Assembly: GCF_032062135.1 (NCBI RefSeq)
Contig: NC_092860.1
Location: 125,472,483-125,536,482, forward strand
Direction: 5' to 3'
DNA: 64,000 nucleotides
From: Pyxicephalus adspersus
Lineage: Eukaryota; Chordata; Amphibia; Anura; Pyxicephalidae
Part shown: positions 2,579-64,000 of the stretch, piece after piece
Position numbering within the stretch: position 1 is the first letter of the stretch
Layout: each line of letters starts with the position of its first letter
The notes under the pieces: generated by a model
Database searches by the model: none
Told to the model about the DNA's origin: nothing
Seen by the model: the letters and a program-made list of their open reading frames with translations, nothing else
Program-made: the position numbers and the translations under genes

Positions 2579-3289
2579 ATATAGGTATTGACAAAAGAGC
2601 CAGGAACTGCCTGGGAACCACTTACATAGCTGACCATGTTACACATTCATTGCAAAGTGGAATAGAAATTAGTTTAAATTGCTGTATAGTAGTTTATTAC
2701 AAATATAAAAGTATAAAAGTGTGAAAAAAAATCTAAATTAATTTTTGTATTATTACCTTAACTATATCTTGTTACTCCCAAGCATCTGTCTTTGTCGGTT
2801 GTAGTTTGTATTAAAATTCAAATATCCTAAATTTTTTAAACACTTAATACATTCAAAGCATCACAATCTTTTTATCTGTTGAAGTACATTTTATTTTATC
2901 TTCATTTTCATTTTTATCTGTTGGATTACATTTGAATAGACCTTTCTTTACGTGTTTCGAGGTTAATAATATTTCCAAAAGAGTCGATTCAAACAAGATT
3001 TCAAACAACTTCCAGACCATTACATTATGTGTAAATCCATTTTATAATTACAATTCATTTCATATTTTAACTACACATATACTTGTACTTTAATTGTATG
3101 GAGCACACAAGTCACAGATTGTCTAAACCATAGGTGGTGGTGAGGGGAGGTGGTTGCAAGAGTAGAAAAGTAGAAGCATTTAGGAGCAGGGACCGAATAT
3201 CCTGCCCATCCTATAAAATAGACATACATAGTTGTGTTATTTAATTCCTATCTTTAACGAATTTTTCCATTTTCATTATAGTATATATA

Positions 3290-54983: not shown

Positions 54984-55846
54984 TGTGAGAGTGTCACAAA
55001 GAATGTCACGGAAAGTGTTAAAAAGGCACCTGGGAATAGAGAGTAAATAGGTCTGTGTACGTTTCTAGGAAGAAACCAGGTTCTATAGGGCCCTGGAGCC
55101 AGCCAAGGGAGTGAAAGGGTGGGTTCCTTGGCCCAACCCTATCCTGGCTGGGTTAATATGCACCTGCACTCGGGTACAATGAAAGGAGGAAGTAATCAGC
55201 CAGAGAGATCCAGGCTGAGGGAGAGCCAGGGGCATCCAGGCTGAGGGAGAGCCAGAGGCATCCAGGCTGAGGGAGAGCCAGAGGCATCCAGGCTGAGAGA
55301 GAGCCAGAGGCATCCAGGCTGAGAGAGAGCCAGAGGCATCCAGGCTGAGAGAGAGCCAGAGGCATCCCCAGGCTGAGAGAGAGCCAGAGGCATCCAGGCT
55401 GAGAGAGAGCCAGAGGCATCCAGGCTGAGAGAGAGCCAGAGGCATCCAGGCTGAGAGAGAGCCAGAGGCATCCAGGCTGAGAGAGTGATCACCAAGACGC
55501 AGCGGGAAGAGGATCAGCACTGTGTTGCAAGCTGGAGGGTGCTTACAAGGCAGCTCAGATAGTTCCCAGAGCTGTGGGGGAACGGAGTTCTGCCTTGCAC
55601 CAGCAACAAGTACATGGGAGTGGAACATGCTTGTTTTGTTATCTAAAGACTGCCTTTGTATTGGTTTTGTTTAAATTGCTTTACTGTTAGTCAGAAAGGG
55701 ACTATCTAAGTAAAGGTATGTAGTTGCTCAGCCAAGCCAGTTCTTTGTTAAAGTGCTAATAAATTGACAGGCATTAACTGCAACTTTGAAGTCTGCTGTC
55801 TGATTCACTGCTGTCTTCTGACCCCGTTGCTACCGGCGATCTCACA
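54984..55846 (+). mobile_element. Solo LTR containing a minisatellite
   Basis: It opens TGTGAGAGTGTCAC and closes GCGATCTCACA, so the termini TGTGAGA/TCTCACA form a perfect 7-bp inverted repeat with TG...CA ends. ATGC lies on both sides (54980-54983 and 55847-55850), a 4-bp target duplication. AATAAA at 55758-55763 lies 83 bases before the end, as expected for an R/U5 junction on the plus strand. At 863 bp it has LTR size. No internal retroviral or gypsy genes lie next to it, so recombination probably removed them. ERV or gypsy origin is not resolved. Confidence 0.75.
55207..55487. repeat. 26-bp minisatellite, 11 units
   Basis: Units such as CATCCAGGCTGAGAGAGAGC plus CAGAGG start at 55207, 55233, 55259, 55285, 55311, 55337, 55363, 55391, 55417, 55443 and 55469. 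One unit carries a 2-bp insertion (CATCCCCAGG). The first units have GAGGGAGAG, the later ones GAGAGAGAG. Twenty-six is not a multiple of three, so all three reverse frames stay open with a 26-residue period. These frames are not genes. Confidence 0.95.
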
Positions 55847-60169: not shown

Positions 60170-60923
60170 ATTAGGTAATAAACTGGGACAGCAGTACATG
60201 ACGCAGGTAGCTCGGATCATCGCCCCCTCTCACCCCAAACCCTCTAAAAACCGTTTTTCCTTGCTCTCCGTCATTTTCAATAAACATTTCCAACTTAAAA
60301 CATTTCCCGCACTTAACTAAATTTTTGATTTTAAACTTTTTCCGCACCCAACGTTCACTATCCTTGCCTTCCCTCCTTCCCACTATTCCTCACCCTTTCT
60401 CCAAAAAACACAAACACCTGTTTGGGATTAAAATGGCTGGCAAGCAGCTGTTTATTTACCAAATATAAACCTATGTTATTAAACAATAAATAACCAATAA
60501 ATACCATACATTACCATAAGTTAACATTCAAATTATCATCACATTAACATAACATAACATAACATATTAGTATATTAATACACCAATAATATTTCAAAAT
60601 TGCTAAACCTATAAAACTTTCTTTAACCAATTATAACTAAGTCTGTAAACCAAAACCCATTATTTAAAACACTGTGCCCTATATCCAACAATCCAACTCC
60701 ACTTTTAACCACCAGGCTGCAGGTCTAGGAAAGGTAAAGTCCGCTCCACCAAGTGTAATTAACCATTTGTACCACACTGGCCCCTAGCCACCCAGCACCG
60801 CCTCAGGGGCCCCACCATTACACCAATAATGGGCACCCTACCACTGAGTTGCCCTACCAAAAATGACCAACAGGACTCTTACCCTCCTAAACCCCAACCA
60901 TCACAGCGCTCAGGTGGGACACC
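60170..60923 (-). other. 3' non-coding region of the Ngaro-like element
   Basis: It is C-rich on the plus strand at 60190-60420 and 60690-60920, with an AT-rich centre that contains a short ACATA repeat (about 60545-60566). A 70-codon reverse frame at 60383-60171 is not recognisable. I could not identify the repeat pattern expected at a Ngaro end. Confidence 0.4.
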
Positions 60924-61345
60924 TCATGCATGAGTTCTCCTCCACACCCAAAATGCTCTCTGCACTCCATCCTGCAAACCTAAAAAACACATATCTGTAC
61001 CTATGGCATTAAGGTGTACCCCGTCCCTGTGCAGAAACCTCCACGTTTCCTGCTCCAATTCTCTGTGCCGAACAATGATCCCCCCATTCCGTGCTACAAA
61101 CTCCTGCATGGATTGCTGACCTAAGTCATTGCCCACAGCATGTATTACTACCACATCCTGGTGACCGTCCAATTCCGCAATTCTTCAGAGCTCTGGCACC
61201 ACCCTGCTCCATAACATGCCACGAGCTCCCAGCCAGCGCACAGTAGCCTCCTCCCTGGGTACTCCTAGCTGTCGGCCCTCTGGCCGGACGTCTGCTCTTC
61301 TGGCACCCCACCACACATAGGAGTGACCCAGTATCCAAACTAAGC
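60924..61345 (-). pseudogene. SGNH-type hydrolase domain of the Ngaro element
   Basis: One frame holds VWILGHSYVWWGARRADVRP (block I, catalytic Ser at 61320-61322), later VVVIHAVGNDLG (block III, Gly and Asn at 61128-61133) and HRDGVHLNAIGTDM (block V, Asp and His at 61014-61025), ending at 60924. Ser, Gly, Asn and His of the SGNH set are all present. The only interruption in this span is TGA at 61185-61187, where relatives would be expected to have an Arg codon. The family contains esterases and lipases. What it does for a retrotransposon is not established. It sits last, after the recombinase, as in hydrolase-bearing Ngaro elements. Confidence 0.75.
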
Positions 61346-61452
61346 AATGATGCTGTCCTGTAATAAAATAAACATTTTACCAACCAAACAACAACTTCCT
61401 CTGCCCTGTAAACAACACCTTTTAACCCTACTATGAACCCCCCCCCCTCATC

Positions 61453-62373
61453 TTACAACAGATGCGTCCGAATGTACAACTGGAACCTTCTAGATTCCCA
61501 CTGCCTAATTCTCTGAATAACTCTTTCCCCTAGGCCCCATCAGGCCGACCCAATCCTTCGGATCTTTCCCTATACTGACCAAACATTTCTTAAACACTGC
61601 TGTGAACTGAAAACGAGACAAAAAGGTCCCGTTTTCATGCAGCAACAAAGGCCCTTCTATCCTAGGCCTCTGTCTGATGAACTCCCCCACTACCGTAACT
61701 GGGCAGCCAGGGGATCCCACATCCTAAAAAGTTGTACTCGAAAACCTTCCCAAACTGGTCAGTCTTAGACTTGCTGATCCACACACTCACCTCCTCTGCC
61801 GTCCAAGTGACATCCTGCCACAAACTCGCCCAGCCCGGTCCCGGGCCGGGCTAACCAATTTTCCAATCCTCATTGCCCCAAAGAACGTCAAAACAAACGC
61901 TGCCTTAAAGAGGAATTTTTCATATAGACCCCTGCACACCCCTGCTATGCTATCCAACAACTCCCCCAACAACGCAAAGGAAACCGGCCTCCTAGTATCC
62001 AGCGTCCCTTTTCCTTTCCTATAACCTTTAACAGCCTGTCTTACTAAAAATTCCTCTCCCCTTTCAACTTAAACAAAAATGCCATACCCACCAATTTCCT
62101 ATTGACCACCGCCACCGACACACCTCTAGCAAAATCCTGCGCCTACCAAAACAACAGTAAGTGCACCAAGTCCCCTCCTGACCTCCCACCCCCAAACTGC
62201 CTGCATAACTGATCCCACTCTCTCCAAACCCCCGCATAAGTGGTCCAGGTGCGCTCACTCACCAACCTCTGTATCATCTCACCAATCAGTCCCATGCAAG
62301 TCCCCACAATTCTACCAGACAAGGCTCCCCTTGCTGTTCCGCCTCTGGCGCCAGCGCGTGAAGCCCGTCCCAC
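61453..62373 (-). pseudogene. Tyrosine recombinase, decayed
   Basis: The core-binding part is visible in 62373-62143 (LVSERTWTTYAGVWREWDQL). The catalytic part follows in 61972-61787 with FFGAMRIGKLVSPARDR, whose Arg codon (61868-61870) is the first of the R-H-R-Y set. Frame 61720-61505 has RPRIEGPLLLHENGTFLSRF and FKKCLVSIGKDPKDW. The C-terminus, in another frame, reads VIQRIRQWESRRFQLYIRTH and stops at 61453. Its Tyr codon (61474-61476) fits the nucleophile. The GTHSFRIGAATEA-like box carrying the central His and Arg was not found and appears deleted. The enzyme would insert circular cDNA by site-specific recombination. Confidence 0.8.
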
Positions 62374-62962
62374 TGGAAACGAGGCAATGCATCAGCCACA
62401 TTTTTAACTCCCGAGGTATGTCGCGCAAACAGATAGGTGTTATACTGCAAAAACCTCGGCACTAAATGCCTCAACAGCCGCACCGCTGGCCCTGACGATA
62501 CTGACAAACTATTGATGGCCTGTACTACACCCAGGTTATCGCAATAAAATCTATCTTTTTTGTTCGCCAAATCCTTCCCCCACAACTCAACTGCCACCAC
62601 TATAGGGAAAAGTTTCAGCACCACCAAATTCTTTACCAGCTCTGCTTCCACCCACGTTGAGGCCACGCCCCCGCATTCCACTTACCCTGAAAATAGGAGC
62701 CAAAACCCGCGCATCTGTGTACAACTCCAAATCCACCGCTGTGATAGGCCCCTCCAACCACATAGCCTTCCCATTGAACAAAACCAAAAACATTTTCCAC
62801 ACCATCTGCCTTCACTTGCTTGGACAAGTGCACAAAGTGTGACGGCAATTTGACTCTGGCCGTCCCAGCTGCAAACCGTCTACAAAATATCTTGCCCATC
62901 CTCACCACCCTACATGCAAAGTTCAACTTAGCAAGGCATCTTTTTTCTGTCACAAACTCCAA
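62290..62962 (-). pseudogene. RT-RNase H connection and RNase H domain
   Basis: Residues from KLNFACRVVRMGKIFCRRFA lead, across a frame change, to LELYTDA (first RNase H Asp region), then ELVKNLVVLKLFPIVVAVEL, FYCDNLGVVQAINSLS (second Asp) and GVKNVADALPRFQWD. The last motif is usually ADALSRFQW in this family, so a Ser has become Pro. RNase H removes the RNA strand during cDNA synthesis. At least two frameshifts are needed to read the domain through. Confidence 0.8.
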
Positions 62963-63003
62963 CCACTTCCGCCCTCAGTGCCACCAGCTTGTCTTGTGGC
63001 AAC

Positions 63004-63770
63004 CTACTCTCTATAGCAACGGAATCTAACTCTTTCCACCGCTGAAGGTACGCCAAAACGATCCGCCACATGCTGTAACGTTCCCAACAAAACCCTACAA
63101 ACTGAACTATCCAGGGGCCCGATTAACATAAAATCATCCAAATAATGGATGACCCAATTTACCCACGCCACTGTCTTAGCAACCCACTCTGAAAACGTAC
63201 TAAATTGTTCAAACAGCGCGCAGGAAATGGAGCAACCCATGGGCAGGCACCTGTCCACGAAATACTCCCCCTGCCACTTGCAACCTAACAAACGCACACA
63301 CTCAGGGTGTACCAGCAATAAACAAAAGGCGGCCTCAATGTCCGCTTTTGCCATCAAAGCTTCCTCACTATTGCGCCGTACCCACCTAATAGCAGCATCC
63401 AGCAATGTGTAAGCCACGGAGCACAATTCCGGGTTAATTCCATCAATTACCAACCCCCCCGGCGGGAATGATAAATGATGGATCATTCTAAACTTACCTG
63501 GCTCCTTCTTGGGGACCAAACCCAACGGTGATACCACCAGGCCGTCAATTGGCGGCACATCAAAAAGGCTGCTCATCCTTCCTAGCCCCACCTCTTTCGC
63601 TAATTTCGCTGCCACTACCTCTGGATGCTGCAATGCCGACCTCAAATTTTTGGGTTCCTTTGGAATAACATTCAATTTGCAGGGAATCCAAAAACCTTAT
63701 GTAAAACCCTCCTCCAATATTCTATCCGCCACTCGGTCAGGATACTTACTTAGAAAAGGCCGCATCCTTG
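63004..63770 (-). pseudogene. Reverse transcriptase domain of the Ngaro/DIRS element
   Basis: It starts around RMRPFLSKYPDRVADRILEE (near 63760). After one in-frame stop it runs from 63675 without interruption to 63004, with VSPLGLVPKKEPGKFRMIHH, SFPPGGLVIDGI, KADIEAAFCLLLVHPE (first catalytic Asp), CLPMGCSISCALFEQFSTF and VIHYLDDFMLIG. YLDD with both catalytic Asp residues is at 63133-63144. The enzyme copies element RNA into DNA. Frameshifts at the C-terminal edge (after RFGVPSA) break the link to RNase H. Confidence 0.88.
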
Positions 63771-63835
63771 CAATGATCACTGGTGTCATTCCTTTTTACA
63801 GCGTCATCCCCCCTCCGACTTACCCCGTTTATTAA

Positions 63836-64000
63836 ACACCTGGCAAGCCAGTGGTTACCTCCACATCCGGAGCATTCGTGGCAGAAACGGTAGGTCCCAC
63901 CAAATTTGCATGTGCCCTCCTTGAACAGCCAGCATACTCCATACTTCTTTCCAGCAAGCGATCCAACTCCTTGTGGCCCACCGGTCCCCCCCTGAAAAAA
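63836..64000 (-). pseudogene. gag-like C-terminus with two zinc-finger motifs (partial)
   Basis: The minus frame reads GVCWLFKEGTCKFGG, then RFCHECSGCGGNHWLARC. The first part is a C-x7-C-x8-C-H finger, the second a C-x2-C-x3-H-x4-C knuckle. Such a pair closes the gag-like protein of DIRS/Ngaro elements, where it presumably binds the element RNA. The rest of gag is outside the window. All motif Cys and His residues are present in this piece. Confidence 0.75.

What the first reader, a model, noticed from the sequence alone, without database searches (positions are those of the whole stretch)
60924..64000. Ngaro/DIRS-type retrotransposon carrying an SGNH hydrolase
Five protein modules (gag zinc finger, RT, RNase H, tyrosine recombinase, SGNH hydrolase) are readable in one order on the minus strand. 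The hydrolase keeps block I Ser, block III Gly/Asn and block V Asp/His. Why a recombinase-type retroelement carries a predicted esterase is not known to me, and its retention of all key residues in a decayed copy suggests it was under selection in the active lineage.
Basis: partly seen in the sequence, partly recalled or inferred. Interest (0 to 1): 0.75.

Follow-up and report, generated by a model that had tools for sequence, protein, structure and literature searches.

The report
Frog retrotransposon carrying an esterase gene
The window ends in a worn-out copy of a frog jumping gene of the tyrosine-recombinase type that carries an extra esterase-like gene, an arrangement already described in frogs, although its ends and the selection on the esterase add some detail.

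Summary
A decayed minus-strand copy of a tyrosine-recombinase (DIRS-order, Ngaro-like) retrotransposon runs from its 3' end at 60197 past the window end: gag end, RT/RNase H region, recombinase, SGNH hydrolase. The host is almost certainly the African bullfrog, Pyxicephalus adspersus. The hydrolase keeps Ser, Gly, Asn, Asp and His, but this copy has a stop codon and lacks 54 central residues. The domain belongs to the element: at least part of it is present in 10 of 11 other copies chosen through RT, and the exception lost the recombinase too. It evolves under purifying selection (median dN/dS 0.165; RT/RNase H 0.102; recombinase 0.213; better-preserved copies only). This is not new in kind: an SGNH ORF after the recombinase is published for amphibian Ngaro-like elements (PMC9210276). 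One point departs from textbook Ngaro: 8 of 8 copies with both ends readable share similar 5' and 3' termini, and no split direct repeats were found in them. The hydrolase's role is inferred; I favour a lipid- or membrane-acting accessory enzyme, as proposed for the LINE ORF1 esterase. Known kind, modest interest.

The parts
60197..60923 (-). 3' noncoding region and 3' terminus of the element (ends ...GTCATG at 60197)
   Evidence: Similar terminus in L007 and L041-L045; 77% identical to L007 over 839 columns and 75% to L040 over 525 columns. No direct repeat within this stretch at 14 nt or more.
60924..61376 (-). SGNH hydrolase, one in-frame TGA at 61185-61187 and 54 central residues missing; blocks I (GHSYV), III (GNDLG) and V (DGVHL) kept
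   Evidence: 17 homologues, best E 7e-53; alignment A1; tblastn 61364-60939, E 1e-47
61456..62382 (-). Tyrosine recombinase, in three tblastn pieces; H-x-x-R stretch unmatched, C-terminal Tyr kept
   Evidence: pieces 43-65% identical to the L043 ORF, which matches Pfam Phage_integrase at E 2e-6; for the C-terminal end
62295..62974 (-). Region homologous to the C-terminal half of the RT/RNase H ORF (RNase H by position; no Pfam match)
   Evidence: pieces at 62974-62657, 62802-62710 and 62708-62295; Pfam named no RNase H in the relatives either
63004..63696 (-). Reverse transcriptase, 230-aa open stretch
   Evidence: Pfam RVT_1 E 2.7e-6, just under the cut-off; 151 matches in the own genome, the window's own included
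63755..63949 (-). End of gag-like ORF with Cys/His zinc-finger-like motif; continues past the window end
   Evidence: 62% identity to the L044 gag end; that ORF weakly matches zf-CCCH_4, E 0.006, below the cut-off

Best explanation
A dead copy of a multi-copy Ngaro-like tyrosine-recombinase retrotransposon of the African bullfrog. In the better-preserved copies the order is gag - RT/RNase H - tyrosine recombinase - SGNH hydrolase, about 6 kb. Shown: the order, a lower bound on copy number, similar termini in several copies, purifying selection on the hydrolase, and conserved Ser, Gly, Asn, Asp and His. Inferred from the class: the RNA is copied to DNA by the RT and inserted by the recombinase. 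Inferred, and the weakest step (about 0.4): the hydrolase is a catalytically competent lipid or acyl esterase acting as an accessory protein of the element's RNP at membranes, as proposed for the SGNH domain of LINE ORF1 proteins.
For: Homologous modules in order. SGNH lies after the recombinase in 8 of 8 copies with both ends (the recombinase itself is internally deleted in c21 and c27), and at least part of it is present in 10 of 11 copies chosen through RT. dN/dS medians: SGNH 0.165 (30 pairs kept), RT/RNase H 0.102 (22), recombinase 0.213 (32), of 78 possible pairs each; shifted frames 1.25-2.4. Ser, Gly and Asn in 13 of 13 copies; Asp and His in 12 of 12 that reach block V. Same arrangement published for Xenopus (PMC9210276). 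Host: protein P0059, named Pyxicephalus adspersus, lies on a contig of 108261872 bases, the length of C6 here. LINE esterase precedent: PMC3905857 (passages).
Against: No split direct repeats found in 8 of 8 copies, a defining Ngaro feature. The hydrolase has the higher dN/dS than RT/RNase H in 11 of 11 common pairs (and the lower than the recombinase in 8 of 11). Resemblance to the LINE esterase is weak: 4c1b at E 0.008, ranked below two prenyl synthases; hhalign probability 14%. No activity, localisation or expression was measured. The copies used were picked for being readable, L051-L058 also for having an SGNH match.
Confidence: 0.85

Rival explanations
1. The hydrolase is a host gene, or the ORF1 of a CR1/L2-type LINE, that merely lies next to the element.
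For: The genome also holds LINE SGNH copies: L001, L005 and L006 have another SGNH type (PF13472 above the cut-off), with a LINE-like endonuclease in L008 and RT in L003 beside such matches.
Against: The window's domain is of the type that follows the recombinase at many separate insertion sites, inside the shared termini; L001-L006 and L008 gave no tblastn match to it at 1e-4.
Confidence: 0.02
2. The SGNH ORF is a passenger without a function for the element, kept by hitch-hiking.
For: Its role is unproven in print (PMC9210276).
Against: dN/dS 0.10-0.25 in 30 of 30 unsaturated pairs and conserved key residues. The one RT-chosen copy without SGNH, L040, lost the recombinase as well.
Confidence: 0.1
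3. The hydrolase is conserved for its fold, as a non-catalytic binding or scaffold protein.
For: Inactive SGNH relatives with other roles exist (named in PMC3905857); block I reads GHS rather than GDS.
Against: Ser, Gly, Asn, Asp and His are invariant in all copies that reach them.
Confidence: 0.3
4. The missing split direct repeats are an artefact: all 8 copies were truncated, and full copies have longer ends.
For: SDR loss is common in Xenopus copies, and DIRS-54_XT shows SDRs only in copies 5 and 10 (PMC9210276). Only 8 of a much larger number of copies were looked at.
Against: Similar termini recur in 8 of 8 copies, and the 3' terminus also in L007, L044, L045 and the window.
Confidence: 0.3

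Closest known systems
[quoted passage not shown] PMC9210276, passages and section 8 seen)
   Same: gag, RT/RH, YR, then an SGNH hydrolase ORF; frog host; degenerate and preserved copies side by side
   Different: DIRS-53_XT has SDRs (A 236 bp, B 152 bp); none found here. Sequence identity to those families not measured (no Repbase sequences on hand).
DIRS-like elements (DIRS order)
   Same: RT/RH and tyrosine recombinase
   Different: DIRS-like can carry a methyltransferase and have inverted terminal repeats (PMC9210276); neither was found here.
SGNH esterase of CR1/L2-type LINE ORF1, structure 4c1b (PMC3905857, passages seen)
   Same: SGNH superfamily domain in a retroelement; a LINE type also occurs in this genome
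   Different: Lies before the RT, in ORF1; sequence relation to the Ngaro type weak
GDSL ORF3 of rotifer Vesta LTR retrotransposons (PMC5408684, passages seen)
   Same: An SGNH/GDSL ORF placed after the replication genes of a retroelement
   Different: LTR element with an integrase; that paper reads the LINE esterases as captured independently of the rotifer ones

Membership tests
DIRS order (tyrosine-recombinase retrotransposons) | RT plus tyrosine recombinase in one element | tested here: met
   RVT_1 and Phage_integrase both above the Pfam cut-off in L042 and L043; homologous pieces in the window
Ngaro-like | Split direct repeats A1 ... B1 A2 B2 | tested here: not met
   No terminal direct repeats beyond chance-sized matches (at most 18 nt aligned at 89-94% for the best-scoring) in 8 of 8 copies with both ends; none in the window's 3' region. 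The window copy's own 5' end is not readable.
Ngaro-like | SGNH ORF after the recombinase (amphibian Ngaro) | tested here: met
   feature taken from PMC9210276
Ngaro-like | RT/RH or YR falls in the Ngaro clade | not tested
   No labelled reference sequences of the superfamilies were on hand
DIRS-like | Methyltransferase after RNase H, inverted terminal repeats | tested here: not met
   No methyltransferase match in the 967-aa L042 ORF; no inverted repeats of 40 nt or more in L040-L045
SGNH/GDSL hydrolases | Ser (I), Gly/Asn (III), Asp/His (V) | tested here: met
   All present in the window and in the copies; PF13472 matches relatives, several below the curated cut-off
SGNH/GDSL hydrolases | SGNH three-dimensional fold | not testable with these tools

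The most novel reading that the evidence does not exclude
Frogs hold a Ngaro-like lineage with unique, fixed termini and no split direct repeats, so it must restore its ends and build its integration substrate by a scheme other than the published SDR model, with an SGNH hydrolase that selection keeps almost as tightly as the replication enzymes.
Probability: 0.3. Interest if true: 0.5.

Novelty: new member of a known kind. Interest (0 to 1): 0.25.

Why it matters
Retroelements of at least three classes (LINE, LTR, tyrosine-recombinase) carry SGNH hydrolases whose role in the element is not settled. The dN/dS result suggests that in this element the gene is needed, not baggage, which makes a lipid or membrane step in its life cycle worth testing. 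The termini without SDRs, if general, would need a revised replication model for part of the Ngaro group.

Tried and rejected
Host gene or LINE beside the element: rejected. Direct Pfam match of the window's SGNH pieces: none. PDB search of the read-through window piece: five hits, best E 0.02, none an SGNH hydrolase. A Pfam scan of two LINE loci was on the wrong strand and says nothing; one search repeated it on the right one. Split direct repeats: sought in the window, in six loci by self-comparison, in the 3' parts of three, in the termini of three, between added flanks and elements and in eight copies: none; the self-repeats of copy c35 lie beyond its 3' terminus. 5' end of the window copy: not settled. 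The held sequence reads N just past the window; a 5' terminus in the right orientation lies about 2 kb beyond the window, but some 70 bases further in resemble the post-SGNH 3' noncoding sequence of other copies, so a second copy or a rearrangement is possible. Searches for papers on the bullfrog genome and on Ngaro with SDRs were used as listings only, apart from passages of PMC8547959, which has no hydrolase or esterase.

Full report
What is there. The window is G000:C3:125472483-125536482 of a 1.44-Gb genome. The host is almost certainly Pyxicephalus adspersus: homologue P0059, so named, lies on a contig of 108261872 bases, exactly the length of contig C6 here. On the minus strand the last 3.8 kb hold a decayed retrotransposon. 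tblastn with ORFs of related copies finds the gag end, the RT/RNase H ORF in several pieces, the recombinase in three pieces and the SGNH hydrolase in that order. The RT piece matches RVT_1 at E 2.7e-6, slightly under the curated cut-off. RNase H was not named by any profile and is assigned by position and by published architecture.

The window's hydrolase. The read-through frame (60924-61376, one TGA) finds 17 homologues among 29 candidates, best E 7e-53, 43-48% identity for the best five. Aligned with 13 of these 17 (the four short or partial ones left out), the window copy keeps GHS (block I), GND (III) and DGVH (V) but lacks 54 consecutive residues between blocks III and V. So the key residues survive, yet the protein would hardly fold normally (inference). 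The recombinase has lost the stretch with H-x-x-R and has a stop just after it, but keeps the C-terminal tyrosine.

Other copies. The RT piece gives 151 matches in the genome, the window's own included; 2474 first-look candidates were found and 150 scored, so this is a lower bound. Six copies were taken from the first 25 rows of that list, partly for their long open frames (L040-L045): three have nearly full-length SGNH (L041-L043), L044 has residues 4-151 of 219, L045 only residues 160-219 with most of the recombinase gone, and L040, the nearest relative (89% over the first 957 columns), lacks recombinase and SGNH together. Five more from the RT list, chosen for a recognisable 5' terminus (three weaker or edge cases, L029, L036 and L039, were left out), all have SGNH behind recombinase sequence; in L021 and L027 the recombinase is internally deleted. 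Hence 10 of 11 copies not chosen for SGNH carry at least part of it. Eight further loci (L051-L058), picked by eye because an SGNH match lay near an RT match, all show RT/RNase H, recombinase, SGNH in order; these are biased by choice.

Selection. Pairwise Nei-Gojobori counts on 13 loci (78 possible pairs), leaving out the overlaps between ORFs, stop codons, pairs with fewer than 60 codons and pairs with pS of 0.70 or more: SGNH median dN/dS 0.165 (30 pairs kept), RT/RNase H 0.102 (22), recombinase 0.213 (32). On the 11 pairs common to all three: 0.134, 0.109, 0.196. Reading the same sites in shifted frames gives medians of 1.25-2.4, on 66-78 pairs; this control is rough, since constraint in the true frame pushes it above 1. 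Ser, Gly and Asn are present in 13 of 13 copies, Asp and His in 12 of 12 that reach block V. Pairwise values mix selection during activity with neutral decay afterwards, the pairs share loci, and the loci are the better-preserved ones, so these are estimates.

Termini. L041, L042 and L043 share sharp ends 5.7-6.2 kb apart, two of the three holding unread stretches. A 5' motif like GAGAGGCCCGTAGCAGGG and a 3' end like CTACCCTAGTCATG recur in other copies; the window's 3' end is at 60197. Shuffled sequence gives 1-4 hits for the 5' pattern and 6-12 for the looser 3' pattern at the mismatches allowed, against 14 and 19 rows seen, so single weak 3' hits mean little; the window's 3' end is also backed by alignment to L007 and L040. 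In 8 of 8 copies with both ends there is no direct repeat between the first 400 bases and the 3' part beyond chance-sized matches, and none within the 3' noncoding part. Ngaro is defined partly by split direct repeats. In Xenopus, DIRS-53_XT has them, and DIRS-54_XT has them only in copies 5 and 10 (PMC9210276, section 8). So the SDR test is not met here, and I call the family Ngaro-like on architecture only.

What is known. PMC9210276 (passages and section 8 seen) states that amphibian Ngaro-like elements carry an SGNH hydrolase ORF after the recombinase, with no proven function, citing Goodwin and Poulter 2004 and Poulter and Butler 2015, which I did not see. A search for Ngaro with SGNH listed only that paper. 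All proteins that carry an organism name among the 120 listed of 297 homologues are from frogs; 177 were not listed.

How it may work. LINE ORF1 proteins of the CR1/L2/RTEX kind carry an SGNH esterase; the zebrafish one has hydrolytic activity and binds acidic phospholipids and liposomes, and its authors favour membrane targeting (PMC3905857, passages). Rotifer LTR elements also carry one (PMC5408684, passages). In this same genome there are LINE loci of another SGNH type: L001, L005 and L006 match PF13472 above the cut-off, with a LINE endonuclease in L008 and RT in L003 beside such matches. The two types are only weakly alike: hhalign probability 14%, E 0.0019 with a three-row template; the LINE structure 4c1b reaches E 0.008 over 76 residues, below two prenyl synthase sequences that are presumably chance. 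Shared descent within retroelements or separate capture cannot be told apart here. I favour a lipid-acting accessory protein, at about 0.4, as inference.

Noticed in passing
window 55198-55485: Minisatellite of 11 copies of a 26-base unit, 96% matches, open in several frames on the minus strand.
   Followed up: no
G000 contig C13 (14.4 Mb): This short contig holds many of the best PF13472 matches; the three looked at (L001, L005, L006) are of the LINE type. It may be a repeat-rich, possibly sex-linked chromosome; the sex link is a guess.
   Followed up: no
L001, L003, L005, L006, L008: SGNH matches of a second type (L001, L005, L006), with a LINE-like RT in L003 and an endonuclease in L008 beside such matches.
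   Followed up: partly
P0113: A Nanorana gene model named NXPE family member 1-like holds an element-type SGNH domain besides PF24536; probably a gene-model fusion, possibly an exon capture.
   Followed up: no
L009 near position 3037, minus strand: A Ngaro-like 5' terminus followed within about 230 bases by sequence like the 3' noncoding part of other copies, suggesting a second or internally deleted copy just beyond the window.
   Followed up: partly
L021 and L027: Recombinase internally deleted (reference residues 130-284 and 35-235 unmatched) while SGNH is kept; such copies could only move with help from intact ones.
   Followed up: no
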